Shown here: one piece after another, positions 1 through 12,360 of the stretch
Numbering within the stretch: position 1 is the first letter of the stretch
How the letters are laid out: every line of letters begins with the position of its first letter
Origin: Paludibacter sp.
GTDB taxonomy: Bacteria > Bacteroidota > Bacteroidia > Bacteroidales > Paludibacteraceae
DNA length: 64,000 nt
NCBI GenBank assembly: GCA_028692715.1
Contig: JAQUWU010000017.1
Location: 22,454-86,453 of the forward strand
Direction: 5' to 3'
Made by a program: the position numbers and the translations under genes
Notes under the pieces: generated by a model
The model's database searches: none
The model's input: only the letters and a program-made list of their open reading frames with translations
What the model was told of the DNA's origin: nothing

Positions 1-37
1 TGGATACACAATTTTTTCAAATTTCAATATAATCCAT

Positions 38-80
38 AAAATAAAGCCGTATCACATAATGTTGATACGGCTTTATTTTT
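38..80. terminator. Perfect hairpin, probable bidirectional terminator
   Basis: A 17-bp perfect stem (arms about 38-54 and 63-79, GC core GCCGTATCA) with an 8-nt loop, flanked by A and T runs on the two sides. It lies beyond the 3' end of the minus-strand gene ending at 209 and would terminate transcription from either side. Confidence 0.8.
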
Positions 81-100
81 AAGATTTTGTAGTATAATAA

Positions 101-199
101 TTAATTGGCTGTTTCTTTTTCCTCTGCTTCTTTCTTTTCTTTAAGCAGTGCTATAATGTCTACAGCATGAAATGTAAAACTTCCCCACGGATAATCGAA
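101..199 (-). pseudogene. Possible C-terminal remnant of a lost gene
   Basis: On the minus strand, 33 codons are open in the same frame as the gene ending at 209, separated from it by the stops TAA (209-211) and TGA (200-202). The translation starts FDYPWGSFTFHAVDII and ends in a Lys/Glu-rich helix before TAA. There is no good start codon in this frame, so it reads like the tail of a deleted protein rather than a gene. I do not recognise the family, and chance is possible for so short a stretch. Confidence 0.25.
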
Positions 200-208
200 T
201 CATTTACT

Positions 209-847
209 TTATCCTTTCAGAATCTCTTTAATTGAATCCTTATATTTTCCCCATTCCTTATTCTTCAAATGATACGACACTTTATACCGTGGACTCTTTC
301 CCCGATAAACAGGAATCAACGGACGTCCCAATTTGTTTTTATCTGCCGGAATAGGAATTTCTATTTTACATTCATAAATATCAGGAGCAATGTGTTTTGA
401 AGTTTCTTTATCTCCCAATACTTCAAGTAATAATTGAGAAGTAAGTAATACCGGAATTTTCGGGTCAAAAACCGACAGTTCTTCTTTTAGGCGTTCAATC
501 CAAAACTCTTCAGCAACCTTTTTCCATATTTTGTTTACTCCTGTTTCTTCTTTAAAATAATTTCTGCAAAGATTCTGTGTATATACTTGTTCCCAATTTA
601 AATCAATTTCTTTTAACTGCTGTAAATGCATTTTTCTAAATTGCACAAAACCTCTATCCTCACTGCCATGCGAAAAAGCATAATCAAATAGAATATTTTT
701 ACTCGTATTCGTTGGGTCACAACCCAGATATATTGCTTTTACAGCTTCTATACCTCCGGGACAATAGGCTAGAGGTAGCTTTTCTGTAACTACTATTTGG
801 TCACCATAAGTTTCGCTAAGTTGGCTTATCAATTGAATATCATTCAT
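209..847 (-). CDS. Uracil-DNA glycosylase-fold-like protein, partner of the helicase
   Basis: A 212-residue protein with no signal peptide or membrane segment. Residues 41-48 read LGCDPTNT after a hydrophobic strand, resembling motif 1 (LGQDPYH) of the uracil-DNA glycosylase superfamily. A helical stretch ending in TQNLCRNYF and a C-terminal strand followed by SYHLKN would fit the later UDG-fold motifs. The canonical catalytic residues are not clearly preserved, so the assignment is fold-level and tentative, and enzymatic activity cannot be claimed. It lies 55 nt downstream of the exonuclease-RecQ-UvrD gene on the same strand with no terminator between, so the two are probably one transcript. 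A role in handling DNA together with that helicase is inferred. Confidence 0.5.
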   Translation of the reverse strand: MNDIQLISQLSETYGDQIVVTEKLPLAYCPGGIEAVKAIYLGCDPTNTSKNILFDYAFSHGSEDRGFVQFRKMHLQQLKEIDLNWEQVYTQNLCRNYFKEETGVNKIWKKVAEEFWIERLKEELSVFDPKIPVLLTSQLLLEVLGDKETSKHIAPDIYECKIEIPIPADKNKLGRPLIPVYRGKSPRYKVSYHLKNKEWGKYKDSIKEILKG

Positions 848-902
848 AGTATTTCATTTAATTTTTATGTTATTTAACGATTGTTTTAATTGTTTTGATT
901 TA

Positions 903-3900
903 TCAGGATTGCTTCTCAAAGTATAATTCAGGTAAAATAATCTTTACTTCTTGCTCATCCCCTTCTTTGAGCCAGTAAACTATAAAGTTCACTTTTGCAC
1001 TTTTCAATTTATAATCACTGGTTTTAATATTTTCCAGTTGATTAATGAATTGCTTTGAGAATTTCAAAACTGATTGTCCCTTTGAGTTCAAACATTCATC
1101 ATTATTCAAAGTCAAAATATCTCCACTCATAAGCAGAGAAACCAAATATTGTTTGTATAAGAAATAGTCGAGCCAAATATCTTTGTATGTCAACTGCATT
1201 GCAAATTCGCTTGGCTGTATATATTCATTTCTATCTTCAATGTATTGCAGATTTTCTATTGAATGTAGATTATCAAGAAGACTTGAGTTCAAATGAATAG
1301 TCAGGTTTTGTTTTGCTCTTGTCATGGCAACATATAATTGTCGTTTAGCCTCGTCTGTTTCTGTATTAAAATTATCAAGCATCAGAAAAACATTGTCAAA
1401 TTCCTTCCCTTTTGCTTTATGAATTGTTGAAACAAAAATTATTTCTCCGTTTTCGTTGAAAAAATCTTCTAATTTCGATTCACGAATAAAAACATCTAAA
1501 TCGGATTTGTATTTCTTTTTTGGATTGGTTACTTCAAAATCTCTTATTATATTATTACATATTTCCAGTTTATTGCTGTTATGGAACTTGTTCATTAAAT
1601 CTCGTTTGGCAGTTTCCCAAATGTCATCACTGATTATAAAAACATCATTATCCAGGTTCAAAAGGCTTAAGAAATATCTTACTTCCACAAGATTATACAA
1701 ATTAAAACCGTCATTTGTCTGAATCAGTTTTGCTTGCATATTATTTCTCAATAGCAATCCTGTTATTTGTAATGCTTCATCATTTGTTTTTGTCAGCACG
1801 CAGGTAGTTCCTGTAAGTTCTGCTGCAAGTATTTCATTTACAAGCGGAATAATTAGATGACTACTCTGATATCGAACCAGTTTTATTTTACCACTGTCGG
1901 TTTGATTAGCAAAAATCGGAGTATCTTTCAATCTATGTCGAACACGTTTAATAAACTGATTGCTGAATTCAACAAGGTTGCTCTTGCTTCTGTAGTTTTC
2001 AAGTAGCTCATGTTTTACTGCTTTGTTTATCCCAATAAATTGTTCCAGGTATTTTGAACTTGCTCCTCTGAATTCAAAAATATTCTGGTCGTCATCTCCC
2101 ACAGCAATCACTCTCATCTCTTCATTTTGCTCCATCATAGCATTTATCAGGTTGAATTCATCTTCATCCATATCTTGCGCTTCGTCAATCACCAACACTG
2201 TTTTTGTAATCCGGCTTGCTTCAACTTCTTTATTTTTGATTTTCTCAATTGTCTTTTTCAGAATCGCATCAGACTTTTCCAAACTCCCAACCTTACCTAG
2301 TAAGTCAAAACAATAGGCGTGAAATGTTTTTATTTCAATGAAGTTTGCAGCATTTCCAATGAGTTTAAATAAACGCTTTTTAAATTCTGTTACTGCTGCT
2401 CTTGAAAATGTCAGCATAAGCAATTGTTCATGTTTGACATCTTCCATTAACAGAAGTGAAGCCAGTTTATGAACTAAAACTCTTGTTTTTCCACTGCCGG
2501 GACCAGCTGCAACAACAATGTACTTCGATTCATTGTCGTTAATAATTTTCAGCTGCGTGGGTGATAGTTCTCCAAAAAGTTGCCGGAATTTTGCGGGAGT
2601 CATTCTTAACCTGAGATCGTCTGCTTTGCTTCCCGGAAAGTATTTATTCAGAAAAGAATTATAGTTCAACTGAAAATAATCTTCCACAAACTGGAGAGCA
2701 TCCTTATAATCGCTAATCATTTTCTTAGCATATTCGCCGACAATGTGAATCTGTTGAACCTTGTTTTCATAAAATTGATTCAGTTTTGCATAATCATTTT
2801 TAGTATACCTTTTAGAATTATCCGGTTCTAGACGCTCAATTGTCATTCGATTATACACAACTAGAAAACCACCTTCAATTTTAATTGCTTCAATTCTTGA
2901 AAGATAAAACAGGGAGTCTTCAATATCTTCAATGCTAATGCTTAGTTTAAAGAGATTCTGACTGTTTTCATAAGCAGTTTTCAATTCGTGAACGGAAAAC
3001 TCAACCAATACTTCTTCTTTTCCAGTATCTTCTTCAGAAACCTTCAGATTACTTTTTTCAAATAGAAATTCAACAATGAATTGAGCTAGCTCATGACGTT
3101 TCTCTAATTTCTCTTTCAGGAAATCTTTTGGTTGCAAACAAAGCACGACAAAATGATTCTTTGAAAATTCAAGGTTCTGTCGTTTGATCCAATTCTTGAT
3201 GGCCCAAAAGTTTAGAATGGTTTTTATCTTGTTTGTGTTTACATCAACACAACCCTTCAACTCAGCTTCCTCGTTCAGTTCTTTAATATGAAATGTCTTT
3301 TCTTGTTCTTCAAACTGCGGAAGTAAAAAGTTCTCAATCTTACTATATGTTTCAACAATGTTGAGTGAATGATTTTTGTTTTCTCCCCTCTTAATGAACG
3401 CTGTCAAATCTTTTGCATCAGCTAAAATGTTTTCCTCACGAAGAAGATTCACGATATTGATTACCTCCTCCTTTACAATTCCCAAATGGTCACTGATATA
3501 ATCAATTCTCGATTCTCCAGAATTATCATTGCTTAGCTTGCGGCTTTTACTTGACAAGAGTTTTTTGATAATCCGGATTCCTTTTTCTTTCTGTTTCTCC
3601 TGAAACCTTTCCGAAGCATTTATCTTGTCGATAGCTTCCTGAGCATTTTTACAGAGAATACTGTTAGCAAAAATCCGTGGCACGTTTTGCCCACGCTTCA
3701 AATAGCCAGCATCCTCCAATGCTGCAATAGCTGTTGTTACTCTTGTTTCAATCTCAACAACATTATCATCCCAACCGGCTTTTCGTGCAATTTCCAATGC
3801 AGAATTTGAAACTGACGAACGGAATCTGGTAATTTCCTTTATAGCTTTCCAAATCTGCTGTATTTCTTTGATGGATAATTTAGTTTGATTCAACAAAATA

Positions 3901-5729
3901 AAATGCTTACCGAGATCCTCTTCATTAAACAACACAAAACAATCGGCTACTATATTTTCATCTCTTCCTGCTCTACCCGCTTCCTGAATATAGTTTTCGA
4001 GCGAATCAGATATTTCATAGTGAATTACCATACCCACGTCTTTTTTATCTACGCCCATTCCAAAGGCCGAAGTGGCCACCATAATCTGAACTTCACCTTC
4101 TATAAATGCATTTTGGTTAGCCGTTTTTTCCTTTACATCCATTTTGCCATGGTATGGCTTAGCATTAAACCCATCTTTAGTTAACCTTTCTGCAAGCAAA
4201 TAGGCTTTTCGGGTTCTAGAAACATAAATAATAGTCGGACAATTTTTTTCCTCAATCAAATCTCTGGCTGTCTGATATTTTTCTTCTTCGTCTCTTTTTT
4301 CAAAAACCTTATACTGAAGGTTTGTCCTTGATGTTTTTGATGTGAAAAGTTCAAGATCTAATGAAAGTTTTTCCCTGAAATAGTTCAGAATATCCTCAAT
4401 GACTTTTTGCTTGGCTGTAGCCGTGAAACACGAAACAGGAATTCCATCTTGCAAATTTTTCTTTTCCTGAATACCCTTAATAAAATCACCAATATATAAA
4501 TAGTCAACTCTGAAATCCTGCCCCCATGAAGAAAAGCAGTGAGCTTCATCAATAACAAAGCGAACAATTTTCCGGCTCAATAACAGTCGTTCAATTGTTT
4601 TAGAACGCAAAGACTCCGGAGAAATATACAGTAAAGAGGCCGAACCATCTTCAACCCGTTCGAATGATTTAGCTCTTTCAATAGGGTCAAGTAAACCATT
4701 TATCGTAACTGCTTCGGTTATTCCGTTTTTTTCAAGATTGTCAACCTGATCTTTCATTAACGATTGTAAAGGAGAAATTACAATTGTCAATCCTTTTGAA
4801 CTTTCACCACTCATCAAAGCCGGAACCTGAAAAGTAATGGATTTACCTCCACCTGTAGGAAATACGGCTAGTAATGATTTATTATCGACAGCTGCCTTAA
4901 CAGCTTCTTCCTGTAAGGGTTCACCGCCATAAGTCCGGTATGAATCAAAACCGAAAAAATGTTTTAATCCTTTGTGTACGTCTAATGCATTATTACAATA
5001 GGCACACCCGCTTACGCAAGGTTTGTTACGCAACCGAAACATGATTCGTTCCACTTCGGGATAATTCTTAAGAACCCAGGGTGGCGTAATGGAATGAATT
5101 TTCTTATAAAGAATAAATGAATGTATAAGCGATAAACAATAAGCAAGCTCCACGGGATACTCCGAAATCAGTTGAGTGAGATCAACCTGTTCACAAATTT
5201 CAGTTGAGAATTGTTGACGTATCAGTTTCTCAGGTTCAGTGTTTGCGCTTGTATAGGAGATAAAGCGAAAAAAGGATTGAAACTCTTTCCGGTCTTTCAA
5301 TAACAAATAGAAAATTTGTTGCAATTTTTCATCTGTTTGCTTAAAGGCGGCCATTTCATCGTAAAACAAATCACGTGCTTTGATGGCATCATTTAACGGA
5401 TTGTTCATTTCTTCCGTTTGTAGTTTATCGTCCTTCAATAATGCATGATAGGGTTTGGTAGGAAATAGCAGAGGGGAAAAGTATAAAGTATCAATGATAT
5501 TTACTGCATTAATTCCCGCAATATTAAGCGCATTACCAATATATTTTATATCGTGGTTAAAAATATTATGTCCACATATAAATTTTGTTCCGTTGACAAA
5601 TTGAACGAACTCAACAACCGAATTTTTATGAAACGAACTTCCATCACCCTTGACACTACCTATGTCAAGAATCTTACGACTTTTTGGTTCAATCTCGGTA
5701 TCGATAAATGCAATAGTTTTCATATTCAT
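903..5729 (-). CDS. DEDD-exonuclease-like / RecQ / UvrD triple-fusion helicase
   Basis: One intact 1608-residue chain. Residues 1-125 resemble a DEDD 3'-5' exonuclease: FIDTE at 8-12, GHNIFNHD at 53-60 and PLNDA at 111-115. The histidine normally 4-5 residues before the last Asp is not obvious (Asn there). A Cys cluster (C238, C242, C245) follows. Residues 265-610 form a RecQ-type SF2 helicase: TGGGKS at 292-297, DEAH at 394-397, QEAGRAGRD at 582-590. Residues about 1055-1490 form a UvrD/PcrA-type SF1 helicase: LSPTQL at 1055-1060, GPGSGKT at 1076-1082, IDEAQD at 1181-1186, GDDDQNIFEFRGA, then HKAKG and YVAMTRAK. Residues 610-1050 are a helical linker with no recognised domain. The expected role is ATP-driven unwinding and degradation or repair of DNA. 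It sits between a broken type I R-M locus and a UDG-like gene, which suggests phage or plasmid defence. Confidence 0.85.
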   Translation of the reverse strand: MNMKTIAFIDTEIEPKSRKILDIGSVKGDGSSFHKNSVVEFVQFVNGTKFICGHNIFNHDIKYIGNALNIAGINAVNIIDTLYFSPLLFPTKPYHALLKDDKLQTEEMNNPLNDAIKARDLFYDEMAAFKQTDEKLQQIFYLLLKDRKEFQSFFRFISYTSANTEPEKLIRQQFSTEICEQVDLTQLISEYPVELAYCLSLIHSFILYKKIHSITPPWVLKNYPEVERIMFRLRNKPCVSGCAYCNNALDVHKGLKHFFGFDSYRTYGGEPLQEEAVKAAVDNKSLLAVFPTGGGKSITFQVPALMSGESSKGLTIVISPLQSLMKDQVDNLEKNGITEAVTINGLLDPIERAKSFERVEDGSASLLYISPESLRSKTIERLLLSRKIVRFVIDEAHCFSSWGQDFRVDYLYIGDFIKGIQEKKNLQDGIPVSCFTATAKQKVIEDILNYFREKLSLDLELFTSKTSRTNLQYKVFEKRDEEEKYQTARDLIEEKNCPTIIYVSRTRKAYLLAERLTKDGFNAKPYHGKMDVKEKTANQNAFIEGEVQIMVATSAFGMGVDKKDVGMVIHYEISDSLENYIQEAGRAGRDENIVADCFVLFNEEDLGKHFILLNQTKLSIKEIQQIWKAIKEITRFRSSVSNSALEIARKAGWDDNVVEIETRVTTAIAALEDAGYLKRGQNVPRIFANSILCKNAQEAIDKINASERFQEKQKEKGIRIIKKLLSSKSRKLSNDNSGESRIDYISDHLGIVKEEVINIVNLLREENILADAKDLTAFIKRGENKNHSLNIVETYSKIENFLLPQFEEQEKTFHIKELNEEAELKGCVDVNTNKIKTILNFWAIKNWIKRQNLEFSKNHFVVLCLQPKDFLKEKLEKRHELAQFIVEFLFEKSNLKVSEEDTGKEEVLVEFSVHELKTAYENSQNLFKLSISIEDIEDSLFYLSRIEAIKIEGGFLVVYNRMTIERLEPDNSKRYTKNDYAKLNQFYENKVQQIHIVGEYAKKMISDYKDALQFVEDYFQLNYNSFLNKYFPGSKADDLRLRMTPAKFRQLFGELSPTQLKIINDNESKYIVVAAGPGSGKTRVLVHKLASLLLMEDVKHEQLLMLTFSRAAVTEFKKRLFKLIGNAANFIEIKTFHAYCFDLLGKVGSLEKSDAILKKTIEKIKNKEVEASRITKTVLVIDEAQDMDEDEFNLINAMMEQNEEMRVIAVGDDDQNIFEFRGASSKYLEQFIGINKAVKHELLENYRSKSNLVEFSNQFIKRVRHRLKDTPIFANQTDSGKIKLVRYQSSHLIIPLVNEILAAELTGTTCVLTKTNDEALQITGLLLRNNMQAKLIQTNDGFNLYNLVEVRYFLSLLNLDNDVFIISDDIWETAKRDLMNKFHNSNKLEICNNIIRDFEVTNPKKKYKSDLDVFIRESKLEDFFNENGEIIFVSTIHKAKGKEFDNVFLMLDNFNTETDEAKRQLYVAMTRAKQNLTIHLNSSLLDNLHSIENLQYIEDRNEYIQPSEFAMQLTYKDIWLDYFLYKQYLVSLLMSGDILTLNNDECLNSKGQSVLKFSKQFINQLENIKTSDYKLKSAKVNFIVYWLKEGDEQEVKIILPELYFEKQS

Positions 5730-5792
5730 TTATAACATTTCAGTTCATAATATTTTTACTCATACAAGTCCGGAGGCTTGATTTTAGCTCGT

Positions 5793-5810
5793 CGTAGTCT
5801 GGTGACTACG
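5793..5810. repeat. Short palindrome of the REP-like family
   Basis: A 7-bp inverted repeat, CGTAGTC and GACTACG around TGGT, in the 96-nt gap between the hsdM stop and the helicase start. It resembles the short GC-rich palindromes clustered at 7326-8645. Confidence 0.5.
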
Positions 5811-5825
5811 AGGAACATAGTTACT

Positions 5826-7311
<1,486 letters not shown>

Positions 7312-7325
7312 ATTCTTATTTTTTC

Positions 7326-7408
7326 AACGGGCTAAAGTCCGTTTTGTCTTAATTTTAACGGACTAAAGTCCGTTGTTACAATAATTTGTTGAATCGTCCC
7401 TACGGGAC
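7326..7408. repeat. REP-like palindromes upstream of hsdM
   Basis: Three short imperfect or perfect palindromes: AACGGGCTAAAGTCCGTT (7326-7343), AACGGACTAAAGTCCGTT (7357-7374, arms of 8 bp) and GTCCCTACGGGAC (7396-7408). The same sequence types recur at 8247-8645, on the other side of the Y1 transposase gene and the small gene at 7418. Confidence 0.8.
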
Positions 7409-7417
7409 TTCATTTTG

Positions 7418-7750
7418 TTATATTTCTGTTGTTTCAATTTTGGTTTTTGGTAAATCGTAAACAAATCCTGCTATCTCTACCGAAAACCATTCATTAAAGA
7501 GCTCGTACGAAATTTTTTGTGGCCAGTCGTTTTCATCTGTCCACATTTGGAAAAGTTCATTTTCAAATATCTCTTTGTAGTATTTTCGTAAAAGTTTATC
7601 AGCATCGCCGGTACTTTCAGTGACTAAATAAGTGGACGATTCTCCCAATATATTTACTTCCATTAGTGAATCTGGAAAAAGATTATTATTCCAGTGAATG
7701 AATGGCTTTTTGAATGTAACAGTTATGGACGTACGATTGAGTATTTTCAT
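7418..7750 (-). CDS. Conserved-looking small hypothetical protein
   Basis: A 110-residue soluble acidic protein starting at ATG 7750, with no signal peptide, membrane segment or motif that I can name. It begins MKILNRTSITVTFKKPFIHW and is rich in Trp, Phe and Glu in its C-terminal half. It follows the transposase gene by 17 nt on the same strand and is bounded downstream by REP-like palindromes, so it may travel with the transposase or be an accessory gene of the former R-M operon. Codon use looks like that of its neighbours. Function unknown. Confidence 0.6.
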   Translation of the reverse strand: MKILNRTSITVTFKKPFIHWNNNLFPDSLMEVNILGESSTYLVTESTGDADKLLRKYYKEIFENELFQMWTDENDWPQKISYELFNEWFSVEIAGFVYDLPKTKIETTEI

Positions 7751-7767
7751 GTGATTAATACAATTTT

Positions 7768-8229
7768 TTATTCCAATTCTTTAAAAATATATTTTTCGTC
7801 ATAAGGAATTTCAAATTTAGCAAGCATATCCTCATATTCTTCTTTAAAAGTATCTTTTCGATGATGTGCTTCCTGATTCTCAATATAATGATAAACCTTA
7901 TCAATATGAGAGTGTGAATAGGAAAATGCACTATAACCCTCCTGCCATTCAAAGCGGTGCGGAGTTAATTGATGGTCATTAATGTACTTCGACGATTTAG
8001 CTTTTGCCACCTGCATCACTTCCGAAATGGATACTGATGGTTTCAGTCCAAAGAAACAATGGATATGATCTTCTACACCATTCACAATAATTGTTTTACA
8101 ACCTATTTCGTTGATAAGTTGTCCTATTACTCCAAGTAATTTCGAACGCCATGATTTATCTATCACAGCATCCCTGTATTTTACAGCAAAGACTGCTTGT
8201 ATGTACACCCGATGGTATGTGTTTGCCAT
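7768..8229 (-). CDS. REP-associated Y1 (HUH) transposase, IS200-like
   Basis: A 153-residue Transposase_17-type protein. The HUH motif is HIH at 55-57 within VEDHIHCFFGLKP, and the catalytic Tyr is probably Y115 (Y113 alternative) in the helix leading to YIENQEAHH. In this family a single-strand DNA endonuclease nicks hairpin DNA; domesticated members (RAYTs) act on scattered REP palindromes rather than on their own element. Here the gene is flanked on both sides by many short GC-rich palindromes (7326-7408 and 8247-8645), as expected for a RAYT. No IS200 left or right end or second transposon gene (tnpB) is present. It is inserted within a former type I R-M operon on the same strand. Confidence 0.85.
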   Translation of the reverse strand: MANTYHRVYIQAVFAVKYRDAVIDKSWRSKLLGVIGQLINEIGCKTIIVNGVEDHIHCFFGLKPSVSISEVMQVAKAKSSKYINDHQLTPHRFEWQEGYSAFSYSHSHIDKVYHYIENQEAHHRKDTFKEEYEDMLAKFEIPYDEKYIFKELE

Positions 8230-8246
8230 GTCATTTTATTTGTATC

Positions 8247-8645
8247 GTCCCTACGGGACTTTGGTTACTTTTCCTCTTTTATCACCACGGACTAAAGTCC
8301 ATAGTTATAAAATGATTTGTCCCTACGGGACGCAGATTGTGCAACGATGCAACATCGTAGTGCCGTAGGCATGATTTTGTATTGTAACGTCGTGGCTTTA
8401 GCCCGACGTTAACGACCGCATACAACTAAAAGAGTGCAATAGGCACGACGCATATTATACAAACTTCCCATCCAATGCCTTTTTTCAATTGCAATGGATT
8501 AAAACCTAATTGCGACAAAATGCTTTGTCCCTACGGGACGCTTTTGGTGCAACTACGCCTTCTTGTAGTGCCATAGGCACGGTATATATTGTTGCGCTGT
8601 GGTTTTAACCCAGCGATATTAGTAATGCTGTGGCTTTAGCCCAGC
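8247..8645. repeat. Cluster of REP/BIME-like palindromes
   Basis: This 400-nt non-coding stretch is packed with palindromes. GTCCCTACGGGAC occurs at 8247-8259, 8319-8331 and 8527-8539 (and at 7396), and GGACTAAAGTCC at 8289-8300. ACGATG/CATCGT is at 8344-8358. TGCCGTAGGCA lies at 8361-8371 and TGCCATAGGCA at 8569-8579. Longer hairpins with a GGC-TTTA-GCC-like core are at 8386-8410, 8595-8615 and 8627-8645. Several pairs alternate in a fixed order, as in bacterial interspersed mosaic elements served by a RAYT. The cluster starts just upstream of the transposase gene and ends at the stop codon of the hsdS remnant. Confidence 0.85.
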
Positions 8646-8646
8646 G

Positions 8647-9125
8647 CTATAAAACCAGCTTCCCTTCAAATGCCTTTTTCAATATACTCTGCTTCAATGT
8701 TTCAGCCTGCAACAAGCTTTGGCTAATGGTTTCTGCTATATTATCACAAACGGTAAGTTTGCTTTCAAGTTCGTCGACAATGAGTTGTTGTTCCATTAAT
8801 ATGGGAACTGGGATTTCAATTTTTCAATTTCTCGTTGATAGTGAGGCGTATTAAGTATTAATTCAAAGTAAGCAGGATTAATAACACTTTCTTTCACTCT
8901 AATTCTATAAACTTTATCAGAATTTATTAACTTTGGTCTTGTTGATTTTACCATACAACATACACCTGTTCTAATTCTTGGTCCTGCTCGAGTTATTAAA
9001 ATATCACCAACTTTCAATTCATGTTGTTCTCTTGGTTTTAGATCTTTAGGTAGAATTTTATTTTCAAGAAAATTGAACTTGCCGATTTGATCACGGGCTA
9101 TTTGTTCAGGATTTTGATTGGGCAT
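8647..9125 (-). pseudogene. hsdS: hsdR start joined to hsdS C-terminal half, frameshifted remnant
   Basis: The minus-strand ORF 8796-9125 begins MPNQNPEQIARDQI, which matches how HsdR subunits start, then continues as GKFNFLENKILP and VGDILITRAGP, typical of an HsdS target-recognition domain. After YQREIEK the frame is lost. The HsdS tail resumes in another frame as IEIPVPILMEQQ, then a coiled coil ending SILKKAFEGKLVL at 8647. A normal HsdS is about 400 residues and HsdR about 800-1000, so a large deletion seems to have fused the first codons of hsdR to the middle of hsdS, and a later indel split the rest. A TAATG stop-start overlap at 8794-8798 could still permit translation of the 49-residue tail. 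Confidence 0.75.
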
Positions 9126-9143
9126 GATTTATATTTAAGATTA

Positions 9144-9151
9144 CAAAGCTA
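9144..9151 (-). promoter_or_regulatory. -7 box of the former hsd operon
   Basis: TAGCTTTG on the minus strand (TAnnTTTG, the Bacteroidetes -7 consensus) lies 18 nt upstream of the ATG at 9125. A -33 TTG is not evident. It would be the original hsdR promoter, now driving the remnant. Confidence 0.45.
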
Positions 9152-9373
9152 CAAAATCTATTTTATATTTTCACATATACTGTTAATGTATTTTGAGAGA
9201 CTTCGAATGGTTTATCAATTGTTCAATAGTTGTAAACTCTAAGCTTTGACGTTGCTCTGAATCTATGTGATTGCTTTAATGTCATTCCAGCTAGGACAAC
9301 ACGTATAATGTTTAATGCCATCAAAGCATGATGAGTGGAGTGGGGGAAATGAACAAAAAAACATCTGTGTTTT

Positions 9374-9703
9374 TTAATTTTTGATGTATGAAATCCAAGC
9401 CCATAACTGTCTATTCTTCAAATAATTAAAATCAAGATCATGATTGAAGGCTTCCCTTTCAAATGAGATATTCATATAGGCTTTTTGTTTATTTCTATAC
9501 TTTAACATTTCAATGCCAAATTCAATAAGATAAAAAAGATAAAAAGGCAGAACCAATAGTTCCACTTGCTGGCGAATATGAATCTTTTCGTGATTCATGA
9601 TCCGTTTATCTTGTTTTAGATTTTTATCTTTGAGTAGGATAAACGGAAATAATGTTATGCCGGAAATTTCGAAGAATCTGATATAAGGGATAATGAGTAT
9701 CAT
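9374..9703 (-). CDS. Small membrane protein with an HExxH motif
   Basis: A 109-residue protein with a hydrophobic N-terminus (1-25), then HEKIH at 38-42 followed by a second hydrophobic helix (47-62). Two glutamates at 82 and 84 (SFEREAF) could supply a third zinc ligand. This is the arrangement of a minimal zincin or M56-like membrane peptidase, but the small size leaves activity uncertain. It ends soon after a conserved-looking aromatic stretch (LWAWISYI). The ADP-ribosylglycohydrolase gene ends 12 nt upstream on the same strand, so the two are probably cotranscribed. Confidence 0.6.
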   Translation of the reverse strand: MILIIPYIRFFEISGITLFPFILLKDKNLKQDKRIMNHEKIHIRQQVELLVLPFYLFYLIEFGIEMLKYRNKQKAYMNISFEREAFNHDLDFNYLKNRQLWAWISYIKN

Positions 9704-9715
9704 TTTATAGCTCTT

Positions 9716-10636
9716 TTAAGCTAAAGCCAGTTCATTAATATCTTCATTCCGTGCCAGCTCATTTATCCATTCCTGAGGAATGTTATCATAACCATAAAAA
9801 AGTCCGGCTAATCCGCCAGCAACCGCAGCCGTTGTGTCAGTATCATCACCTAAGTTTACTGCTTTAAGTACAATTTCGGAATACGATTCGGAATTCATAA
9901 AACACCAAATAGCAGCCTCCAAAGTATGTATCACATATCCCGATGATTTTATTTCATTTCTTGGGATTCCCAAAAACGACAAACTACACAATCGTTCAAA
10001 ATGACCTATCTCTTTATTTTTTATTTTTAGAGAACGGGTATAATCTGTAAATTCCTTTGCAGTTATAATGAATGCCTGTTCTTTTGAATTACCCAGGAGG
10101 ATATTGCGCAGAAACTCAAGATAATAAAAACAGGCAAGAACAGAACGGATATGTCGGTGAGTAATTGAAGATATTTCTTTCGTAATTCCAAACCTTTCGT
10201 TTATTGGCATTTTATAAATATAGATTAGCAAGGGTGCAATTCGCATAAGGGAACCATTCCCATTGTCATTTTCACGATCACCTCCGGCAACTAAGGGTTG
10301 AACTCCTGATCTTAAACGATGAATAGCATCTCTTGTTGCAGCACCTACATCAAATACTTCATTATGAGCAGTCCACCATCCATTGTCGAACCACTTAATA
10401 AAATTTGTAGCTATTTGATGTAGTTCAAATCCTTGCTTCATTGCTTCTACCATACAAAATGTAAGCGAACTATCGTCTGACCAGGTTCCTTTGGGTTGAT
10501 TGTGTGTTCCATATTCCTGCATAATACTAACAGGGTATTTATCAAGATATTCCCGTGTCTTAAATTCTACAGGAACACCTAATGCATCACCTACAGCTAC
10601 ACCAAACAGAATGTCTTTGAGTTTATTGTTTATCAT
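9716..10636 (-). CDS. ADP-ribosylglycohydrolase family protein
   Basis: A 306-residue DraG/ARH-type hydrolase that removes ADP-ribose from proteins or small molecules using two divalent metals. Metal-site motifs are present: GDALGVPVE at 16-24, TWSDDS at 51-56, NGNGSLMR at 125-132 and LGDDTDTTAA at 262-271 near the C-terminus. Length fits the family. No ADP-ribosyltransferase or nitrogenase gene is nearby, so the substrate is unknown; a toxin-antitoxin or defence role is possible but not shown. A CAAAGATA sequence at 10676-10683 gives TATCTTTG on the minus strand, a probable -7 box about 40 nt upstream of the start. Confidence 0.88.
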   Translation of the reverse strand: MINNKLKDILFGVAVGDALGVPVEFKTREYLDKYPVSIMQEYGTHNQPKGTWSDDSSLTFCMVEAMKQGFELHQIATNFIKWFDNGWWTAHNEVFDVGAATRDAIHRLRSGVQPLVAGGDRENDNGNGSLMRIAPLLIYIYKMPINERFGITKEISSITHRHIRSVLACFYYLEFLRNILLGNSKEQAFIITAKEFTDYTRSLKIKNKEIGHFERLCSLSFLGIPRNEIKSSGYVIHTLEAAIWCFMNSESYSEIVLKAVNLGDDTDTTAAVAGGLAGLFYGYDNIPQEWINELARNEDINELALA

Positions 10637-11094
10637 CTTTTTTAATGATTAATCTTTATTGATAATATTATCAACCAAAGATATTAAATATTTTCAATTA
10701 ATAAATTATCAATTTAATGACAAAAGTCAATTAGAACTATCTTCATCATTGAGGACAAAACTATTCACAGTAGCTAATTTGTTAATTGTTTAAAAAAATG
10801 GAATTATTTGTCATTAGTTTGTTACAAGTACTCTACAGGACAATTAATCACTTAAGTTTTCATTTTTTTGACTTTTACAATACAATGCCAAAATCGGTAT
10901 GTATTGTACAAGTCTTTATAATGAAATCAATAAAATTGTTCATCATCAAACTTCAATTTCATTCTTTATTCTTTTATTATATTTAAATTTCAACTAAATT
11001 TTATTTACATGTATATTCTAATGAAAAAAATATCGCAATATTTTAGTAATTTTGAAAATTGATTAAAATTACTTTATAATTAAGCAAAAAAGTT
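10637..11094. other. AT-rich divergent intergenic region
   Basis: 458 nt between two divergent genes. It holds a TATCTTTG box on the minus strand (10676-10683) for the hydrolase and TAATTTTG on the plus strand (11047-11054) for the Nramp gene. An open stretch at 10786-10986 is AT-rich, lacks a family signature and is not called as a gene. Confidence 0.55.
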
Positions 11095-12360
11095 ATGTTT
11101 AAACTCTTCAGAAATATTGATAAGAAAAATTATCGTCCCGTATTGGGCGGTATGGATATTTTTAAATTTATAGGTCCAGGACTACTTGTTACAGTTGGTT
11201 TTATTGATCCGGGAAATTGGGCATCAAATTTAGCTGCCGGAGCAGATTATGGCTATGCATTATTGTGGATGGTCACATTATCAACCATTATGTTGATTTT
11301 TTTACAACATAATGTGGCTCACCTTGGTATTGCCACGGGATTATGTCTATCAGAAGCTACTGCCATTCATTTAAAACCGAAATACTCAAAGTTTCTACTT
11401 ACAACTGCTATGTTGGCTTCTATTTCAACGTCTTTAGCCGAAATTTTGGGAGGTGCTATTGCGTTAGAAATGTTGTTTAATATTCCTATTAGGGCAGGTT
11501 CATTGATTGTGACAATTTTTGTTATCATAATGTTATTTACAAACTCCTATCGTTTGATAGAAAAATGGATTATTGCCTTTGTATCCATTATTGGCTTGTC
11601 ATTTTTTTATGAATTGTCACTGGTTCAGATTGATTGGAACAGTGCAATGGTAGGATGGGTAACTCCTTCGTTTCCAAGAGGATCGATGCTGGTTATTATG
11701 AGTGTTCTCGGAGCTGTAGTTATGCCTCACAATCTTTTTTTACATTCCGAAGTAATTCAAAGTCGTCAATGGAACTTGCAAGATGAAAAAGTTATTAAGA
11801 AACAATTGCGGTACGAATTTACCGATACACTTGTTTCAATGTTGATTGGTTGGGCGATAAATAGTGCAATGATTCTGTTGGCTGCAGCCACTTTCTTTCA
11901 AACAAAAACTCCTGTTTCCGAACTTCAACAAGCGAATCAATTGTTAGCTCCTTTGTTGGGGTCAAATGCTGCTGTTGTTTTTGCTGTTGCCCTATTATTT
12001 GCCGGAATAGCATCAACGATTACTTCCGGAATGGCTGCCGGAAGTATTTTTGCAGGAATGTACAAAGAACCTTACGACATTAAAGATAATCACTCTAGGT
12101 TAGGAGTAGCCATCTCACTTTTTATTGCTTTTGGGATTATATTGCTGATTACGAATCCATTTCAGGGATTAATCATTTCGCAAATGATATTGAGTATTCA
12201 ATTACCATTTACAATATTTTTGCAGGTTTACTTAACTTCATCCGAAAAAGTTATGGGTAAATACAAAAACTCTAAACTCTCAAAAATTTTACTTTATTCA
12301 CTCGGTGTTATTGTAGGCGGATTAAATATTGCATTATTTATTAGCTTTTTTGTTAGTTAA
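11095..12360 (+). CDS. mntH: Nramp family divalent metal transporter
   Basis: A 421-residue integral membrane protein with about 11 hydrophobic segments that imports Mn2+ or Fe2+ with protons. The metal-binding DPGN motif is at 38-41 (helix 1) and the helix 6 motif reads AVVMPHNLFLHSE, retaining the Ala and the metal-binding Met. Length is normal. It is preceded by a TAATTTTG box at 11047-11054. A hairpin separates it from a second cation transporter gene on the same strand, so metal homeostasis may be a shared theme. MntR or Fur operators were not recognised. Confidence 0.92.
   Translation: MFKLFRNIDKKNYRPVLGGMDIFKFIGPGLLVTVGFIDPGNWASNLAAGADYGYALLWMVTLSTIMLIFLQHNVAHLGIATGLCLSEATAIHLKPKYSKFLLTTAMLASISTSLAEILGGAIALEMLFNIPIRAGSLIVTIFVIIMLFTNSYRLIEKWIIAFVSIIGLSFFYELSLVQIDWNSAMVGWVTPSFPRGSMLVIMSVLGAVVMPHNLFLHSEVIQSRQWNLQDEKVIKKQLRYEFTDTLVSMLIGWAINSAMILLAAATFFQTKTPVSELQQANQLLAPLLGSNAAVVFAVALLFAGIASTITSGMAAGSIFAGMYKEPYDIKDNHSRLGVAISLFIAFGIILLITNPFQGLIISQMILSIQLPFTIFLQVYLTSSEKVMGKYKNSKLSKILLYSLGVIVGGLNIALFISFFVS

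What the first reader, a model, noticed from the sequence alone, without database searches (positions are those of the whole stretch)
209..5729. DEDD exonuclease-like/RecQ/UvrD single-chain fusion paired with a UDG-fold-like protein
Seen: one 1608-residue ORF with an N-terminal DEDD-like module (FIDTE, GHNIFNHD, PLNDA), a Cys cluster, a full RecQ helicase and, after a 440-residue linker, a full UvrD-type helicase. A 212-residue gene with an LGCDPTNT motif follows after 55 nt. Known: helicase-nuclease fusions and UvrD-like partners are frequent in phage defence (e.g. Gabija GajB is UvrD-like). Inference: two motors of opposite expected polarity plus a nuclease and a base-excision-like or DNA-end sensor would form a self-contained DNA-processing machine. 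Its position inside an R-M island suggests anti-phage or anti-plasmid activity. I know of no characterised system with this exact composition.
Basis: partly seen in the sequence, partly recalled or inferred. Interest (0 to 1): 0.85.

Follow-up and report, generated by a model that had tools for sequence, protein, structure and literature searches.

The report
Stand-alone exonuclease–RecQ–UvrD fusion enzyme
One large bacterial protein joins a probable DNA-chewing domain to two DNA-unwinding motors; it is a widespread, horizontally exchanged, uncharacterised gene that is usually found without the neighbour it was thought to be paired with, and it may be a one-gene anti-virus or DNA-end-processing enzyme.

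Summary
The observation mostly holds; the pairing does not. ORF 903-5729(-) encodes 1608 aa: DEDD-type exonuclease module, Cys cluster, RecQ motor, a 'linker' with winged-helix structure, and a compact UvrD motor. Relatives were confirmed at 583 stretches in genome contigs; 91 of 113 fetched loci hold an ORF of at least 1500 aa. Four DEDD acids and the checked residues of both motors are invariant in 92 of 92 sequences, but the DEDD general base is Asn (87) or Ser (5). The 212-aa partner was found at 0 of 113 relative loci (24 have under 1 kb downstream). Its UDG fold could not be shown. The motors are not of opposite polarity: both families are 3'->5' (recalled). The gene is usually solitary, horizontally transferred, and moderately enriched beside defence genes: at least 10 of 27 loci versus at most 3 of 27 same-contig controls; many loci look ordinary. 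In the window it lies between a decayed type I R-M locus and, past an integrase-like element, brxABC. Best reading: a mobile single-gene DNA-end-processing nuclease-helicase, probably defensive, untested.

The parts
903..5729 (-). 1608-aa DEDD-RecQ-winged helix-UvrD fusion gene
   Evidence: 91 of 113 relative loci hold an ORF of at least 1500 aa
5325..5729 (-). DEDD-type exonuclease module, residues 1-135 (D10, E12, D60, D114; Asn109 in place of the general-base His)
   Evidence: hhalign 95% versus RNase_T-family alignment; residue conservation 92 of 92; weak PDB profile hits (best E 0.021) to exodeoxyribonuclease, DnaQ, DEDDh and T7 polymerase chains
4995..5018 (-). Cys cluster C238-C242-C245, possible metal site
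   Evidence: 91 of 92 sequences keep each Cys; metal binding is inferred
3909..4967 (-). RecQ motor core, residues 255-607
   Evidence: TIGR00614 1.8e-82; PDB RecQ5/RecQ/WRN helicase hits; Walker K296 and DEAH 394-397 in 92 of 92
2568..2774 (-). conserved helical segment joining this region to the UvrD motor, residues 986-1054
   Evidence: secondary structure of the model; conservation
1275..2567 (-). compact UvrD/GajB-type SF1 motor, residues 1055-1485
   Evidence: PF00580, PF13361; PcrA and GajB alignments; K1081, D1182, E1183, R1247, R1471 in 92 of 92
906..1274 (-). C-terminal tail, residues 1486-1608, least conserved part, no family match seen
209..847 (-). 212-aa near-orphan gene with an LGCDPTN motif; incidental neighbour, possibly UDG-fold
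   Evidence: no Pfam, NCBIfam or PADLOC match; not found at 113 relative fusion loci; model unusable, pLDDT 33.5
5826..7311 (-). hsdM-like gene split into two overlapping frames (6346-7311 and 5826-6410), remnant of a type I R-M locus
   Evidence: the two frames match consecutive parts, 2-296 and 294-478, of the same type I methyltransferase model PDLC03026
8796..9125 (-). hsdS fragment
   Evidence: type I specificity-subunit models, best E 1.4e-11

Best explanation
A horizontally mobile, single-gene nuclease-helicase that loads on free or forked DNA ends. The winged helices and the two 3'->5' motors (RecQ, compact UvrD) grip and open the duplex, and the DEDD module trims the exposed 3' strand. 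The likeliest biological role is destruction or blocking of incoming phage or plasmid DNA ends, functionally comparable to Gabija or Hachiman but in one chain. Shown by sequence: architecture, intact catalytic residues except the DEDD general base, usually solitary gene, horizontal transfer, moderate defence association. Inferred: polarity, substrate, exonuclease activity, defence role. The 212-aa neighbour is not a component of the family's function.
For: Architecture. Invariance of four DEDD acids and the checked motor residues, 92 of 92. Solitary: the next downstream gene (80 aa or more) is same-strand and within 60 nt in 10 of 82 loci that have a downstream gene. Sporadic: 14 of 296 phylum genomes, own included. 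Horizontal transfer: G034, outside the window's class, shares 83% fusion identity, but only 41% (partial, residues 5-349) and 37% (residues 6-582) with the window genome's two separate RecQ proteins; fusion and RecQ identities do not correlate significantly (rho 0.39, p 0.18, 13 genomes; rho 0.35, p 0.29, 11 genomes). Defence neighbours among the four nearest genes: at least 10 of 27 loci and 14 of 108 proteins, versus 3 of 108 proteins (at most 3 of 27 loci) in same-contig controls, Fisher p 0.027 and 0.005; one of the three control matches is itself a 100-aa remnant of a fusion. N6 methylase within 15 kb in 4 of 41 genomes, about 1.1 expected if contig ends are ignored, p 0.025. Present on plasmids and on 13 IMG/VR contigs.
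Against: No phage or DNA assay exists. Many loci sit beside housekeeping genes. The enrichment is moderate: p near 0.03 by locus; the 20 of 108 neighbours scanned singly were picked by eye, the 27 loci were those with full flanks on long contigs, and the control places were chosen by hand. The DEDD general base is replaced in 92 of 92, so the nuclease may be weak or only an end sensor. The family could serve repair or mobile-element DNA metabolism instead. Ten of 113 loci have a shorter frame that does not run off a contig end, which may be decay or assembly error.
Confidence: 0.5

Rival explanations
1. An accessory DNA-repair or recombination enzyme, working like the eukaryotic Werner protein (exonuclease plus RecQ) with an added UvrD motor: it processes stalled forks or broken ends of the cell's own DNA.
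For: Exonuclease-RecQ order as in WRN (recalled); WRN helicase chains match the RecQ core; many loci have housekeeping neighbours; usually solitary gene.
Against: Sporadic distribution, 14 of 296; horizontal transfer; moderate defence-neighbour enrichment. The exonuclease lacks the DEDDy tyrosine of WRN (motif recalled).
Confidence: 0.27
2. A helper of mobile elements (plasmids, integrative elements, prophages), aiding replication or transfer of their own DNA or protecting it.
For: On plasmids, including beside parA/parB in Aliarcobacter; 13 IMG/VR contigs; among 103 neighbours on 11 of these contigs, 5 match an integrase family, 5 a DNA invertase family (perhaps the same proteins) and 1 a terminase (25 of 108 families shown); an integrase-like element abuts this locus.
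Against: No fixed mobile-element gene was seen beside the chromosomal and MAG copies listed (by eye); no match covering at least 80% of the fusion in 50,697 phage records.
Confidence: 0.13
3. One reading: the fusion plus a UDG-fold lesion or end sensor.
For: 55 nt spacing on one strand; the partner's LGCDPTN motif resembles UDG motif 1 (recalled), and its best hhalign segment to UNG covers that motif. Its only clear relative (G172) keeps LGxDPxN and sits by DUF2075-like and DUF262-like genes named by eye.
Against: No partner relative at 113 relative loci and near-absence elsewhere. The single-sequence UDG score lies in the shuffle range, the two-row score only slightly above it.
Confidence: 0.05
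4. The DEDD module is catalytically dead and serves as a DNA-end sensor, so the protein is a double helicase. (This can be true together with any of the other readings.)
For: General-base His/Tyr replaced by Asn (87) or Ser (5) in 92 of 92.
Against: All four metal-binding acids invariant in 92 of 92, and an invariant His95 that could substitute (position not tested in 3D).
Confidence: 0.25

Closest known systems
Werner syndrome protein WRN
   Same: N-terminal DEDD-superfamily exonuclease and RecQ motor in one chain (WRN layout recalled)
   Different: WRN is DEDDy, has RQC and HRDC domains and no UvrD (recalled); here the general base is Asn/Ser and a winged-helix region plus UvrD follow
Bacterial RecQ (TIGR00614 family)
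   Same: RecQ motor core over the family cut-off
   Different: below the RecQ equivalog cut-offs; extra exonuclease and UvrD; two separate RecQ-type proteins of 728 and 635 aa exist in the same genome
Gabija GajB
   Same: compact UvrD motor aligning in one stretch with solved GajB chains; nuclease-helicase logic
   Different: no GajA match shown among the eight window proteins and six proteins beyond the window's left edge that were scanned; RecQ and DEDD in the same chain
PsyrTA / RqlHI
   Same: RecQ-like toxin or defence helicase; the PsyrT model hits the RecQ core
   Different: RqlH has a phosphoribosyltransferase domain and a partner RqlI (PMC4670107, passages); no match to either was shown here
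Hachiman HamAB
   Same: nuclease-helicase genome-integrity sensing (PMC12278908, start of abstract in a search listing)
   Different: two proteins (same source); different nuclease and helicase types (recalled)

Membership tests
RecQ helicase family | RecQ motor core above the family cut-off | tested here: met
   TIGR00614 277.6 bits versus 219.8
RecQ helicase family | canonical RecQ over the full length (RQC and HRDC) | tested here: not met
   recQ equivalog 317.4 versus 640.2 bits, profile 5-363 of 591
DEDD exonuclease superfamily | four metal-binding acids in motifs I-III | tested here: met
   D10, E12, D60, D114 in 92 of 92; hhalign 95%
DEDDh or DEDDy exonuclease | general-base His or Tyr in motif III | tested here: not met
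   Asn 87, Ser 5 of 92 at D114-5; Asn 81, Asp 8, Ser 3 at D114-4; by sequence alignment only
UvrD/Rep SF1 helicase | UvrD N and C helicase domains with motifs I-VI | tested here: met
   PF00580, PF13361 over cut-off; conserved motif blocks
Gabija | GajA OLD-type nuclease beside GajB | tested here: not met
   no GajA model shown for 14 proteins of the locus
WRN-type | exonuclease plus RecQ in one chain | tested here: met
WRN-type | 3'->5' exonuclease and helicase activity | not testable with these tools
   needs biochemistry
Uracil-DNA glycosylase superfamily (212-aa protein) | UDG fold or profile match | tested here: inconclusive
   no Pfam hit; hhalign score 17.3 inside the range of 30 shuffles, maximum 20.0; two-row profile 21.6; model pLDDT 33.5
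Anti-phage defence system | protection against phage | not testable with these tools
   only neighbourhood enrichment available

The most novel reading that the evidence does not exclude
A large, uncharacterised family of one-gene immune machines in which a non-canonical DEDD exonuclease (Asn in place of the general base), a RecQ motor, a winged-helix region and a GajB-like UvrD motor are fused, so that sensing of DNA ends and their degradation happen in one self-sufficient chain spread between phyla by horizontal transfer.
Probability: 0.4. Interest if true: 0.75.

Novelty: new variant of a known kind. Interest (0 to 1): 0.5.

Why it matters
Hundreds of sequenced species carry this protein, in annotated plasmid records under the bland name 'RecQ family ATP-dependent DNA helicase'. 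If it is a single-gene defence, it shows the nuclease-helicase logic of two-gene systems in one chain. If it is a repair enzyme, it is a bacterial exonuclease-RecQ fusion comparable to the human Werner protein. Either way one gene can be cloned and tested, without the neighbour that was thought to be needed.

Tried and rejected
Partner as a system component: rejected. UDG fold of the partner: hhalign with one and two sequences against UNG and other UDG-family sets was within or slightly above the scores of 30 shuffled single sequences; AlphaFold with one sequence was unusable; the cytochrome P450 match at E 0.00015 was taken as chance; a PDB search with the two-row profile gave three weak hits to other proteins. 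Pfam on the N-terminal module: nothing relevant. Fold search of the linker by Foldseek alone: nothing at E 0.001 or better; the winged-helix reading rests on the second look and secondary structure. Sequence search of the linker against the PDB: none. BREX or type I R-M membership: the fusion is a neighbour, not a component, since such genes are not seen at many relative loci. Rfam in 1-12000 and tRNAs in the window: none. Promoter scan 30 found, 22.5 +/- 5.0 expected; terminators 4, 3.2 expected. Literature: ten full-text searches; none of the listings or passages seen names this triple fusion; the library holds open-licence PMC papers only.
Full report
Observation. Pfam finds the DEAD/Helicase_C and UvrD domains. 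NCBIfam places residues 255-619 in the RecQ family above its cut-off but far below the canonical RecQ equivalog cut-off. The first 250 residues have no relevant Pfam match. An alignment of family members compared with an RNase_T-family alignment gives 95% probability, E 3.9e-8; the five other kinds of pair tested, including the partner against the UDG set, gave 0.1-0.7%. A profile search of the PDB lists exodeoxyribonuclease, DnaQ, DEDDh and T7 polymerase chains among 13 hits, each only weakly, best E 0.021; other hits in the list are unrelated.

Catalytic residues. In an alignment of the window protein with 91 relatives of at least 1500 aa (two of them duplicates), D10, E12, D60 and D114 are invariant, as are the checked Walker, DEAH/DE and arginine residues of both motors. 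The position five before D114, where DEDDh enzymes have His (recalled), is Asn in 87 and Ser in 5; the position four before, where DEDDy enzymes have Tyr (recalled), is Asn, Asp or Ser. His95 is invariant. So metal binding looks preserved but the general base is not the usual one.

UvrD module. PcrA aligns in pieces with long PcrA-only stretches between them, while GajB aligns in one stretch (query 131-434, chain 164-476).

Family. The N-terminal module was found in 14 of 296 phylum genomes, own included, each time in a frame of 1601-1731 aa. Thirteen IMG/VR contigs and seven plasmid records with at least 80% cover also carry it. Of 113 fetched loci, 91 hold an ORF of at least 1500 aa (one of them cut by a contig end), 12 have a shorter frame that runs off a contig end, and 10 a shorter frame that does not.

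Partner. No relative of the 212-aa protein was found at any of the 113 loci by phmmer or blastp on ORFs or by tblastn on the DNA (best E 0.56); 24 of the 113 have less than 1 kb downstream of the fusion frame. Elsewhere: one other of 296 genomes, G172, which has no fusion hit; one weak hit in 345 class genomes; two besides the own genome, one of them weak and the other G172 again, among 395 with the two-row profile; none in plasmids, phages or viral contigs. The G172 copy keeps LGxDPxN and lies among genes that I recognise by eye as DUF2075-like and DUF262-like. The UDG idea is reasonable at motif level but not demonstrated.

Context of the window. Upstream of the fusion is an hsdM gene split into two frames and further on an IS200-type transposase-like ORF (named by eye) and an hsdS fragment. 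Beyond the partner lie a 413-aa ORF that I read by eye as an integrase and a protein matching VirE/PrimPol-type models, then brxA, brxB and brxC. So the locus is a defence island, disturbed by mobile elements.

Context of the family. In the 91 loci, counting genes of 80 aa or more, the downstream neighbour is same-strand within 60 nt in 10, absent in 9, and otherwise distant or opposed: usually a solitary gene. For 27 loci with full flanks on contigs of 100 kb or more I took the four nearest genes (108 proteins), and 108 proteins from another place on the same contig, chosen by hand. At E 1e-10 PADLOC lists 106 families for the neighbours and 6 for the controls. Scanning 20 of the 108 neighbours singly, chosen by eye, 14 matched, in 10 of 27 loci: type I HsdR and HsdM, type III enzymes, AbiEi, a PD-T4-1-like protein, a cytosine methylase, an HNH protein and several candidate systems; more may match among the 88 not scanned singly. 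In the controls three proteins match: two to mad2, and one 100-aa frame that carries the five RecQ-type matches and is itself a remnant of a fusion, 86% identical over 78 residues, on a Desulfosporosinus contig. Fisher p is 0.027 by locus and 0.005 by protein, or 0.010 and 0.0015 without that remnant. N6 methylases lie within 15 kb in 4 of 41 genomes (G618, G622, G625, G631), about 1.1 expected, p 0.025. Against this, redox, ParA-like, outer-membrane and metabolic genes are frequent neighbours (partly named by eye).

Horizontal transfer. Against G034, outside the window's class, the fusion is 83% identical, while the window genome's 728-aa RecQ matches there at 41% over residues 5-349 only (perhaps a paralogue) and its 635-aa RecQ at 37% over residues 6-582. 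For a same-class genome, G045, the values are 68%, 60% and 41%. Fusion identity does not correlate significantly with either RecQ (rho 0.39, p 0.18; rho 0.35, p 0.29), though with 13 and 11 genomes the power is low.

Literature. RqlHI (PMC4670107, passages), the YprA preprint (PMC12458937, passages), the P2/P4 hotspots paper (PMC9122126, one passage in its references), the polyvalent proteins paper (PMC5512222, passages) and the Gabija preprint (PMC12407980, abstract and outline) were looked at. None of the passages seen describes this fusion. The Gabija preprint proposes that Gabija acts on linear DNA devoid of RecBCD; that is the model I borrow by analogy, not by test.

Verdict. The fusion is a real, widespread, usually solitary, horizontally moving enzyme. 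It is best seen as a DNA-end-processing nuclease-helicase, more likely defensive than not, with repair as the main rival. The pairing with a UDG-like protein is not a property of the family.

Noticed in passing
L011 (G000:C113:8000-24000), 3035-8039: brxC, brxB and brxA genes lie just outside the window beyond an integrase-like ORF and a VirE/PrimPol-type protein; PADLOC matches are strong (BrxC 1751 bits).
   Followed up: partly
window 5826-7311: hsdM is split into two overlapping frames, a real decay or an assembly error; described only.
   Followed up: partly
window 7768-8229: IS200/REP-type transposase-like ORF between the hsdM and hsdS remnants (named by eye).
   Followed up: no
window 9716-10636: ADP-ribosylglycohydrolase family protein (PF03747, 1.1e-74), with a sub-cut-off match to the Tri1 immunity model.
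   Followed up: no
L046 6020-11746 (G172): The only clear relative of the 212-aa protein is a 118-aa LGxDPxN ORF next to DUF2075-like and DUF262-like genes (named by eye), in a genome without a fusion hit.
   Followed up: partly
L202 5279-5578 (G632:C11): A second, 100-codon remnant of a fusion lies about 45 kb from the full copy on the same Desulfosporosinus contig, a sign of duplication or turnover of the gene.
   Followed up: partly
L088 6151-16774: A relative fusion sits directly after an McrB/McrC-like pair and before UmuD/UmuC-like genes (named by eye; the first protein matches PD-T4-1).
   Followed up: no
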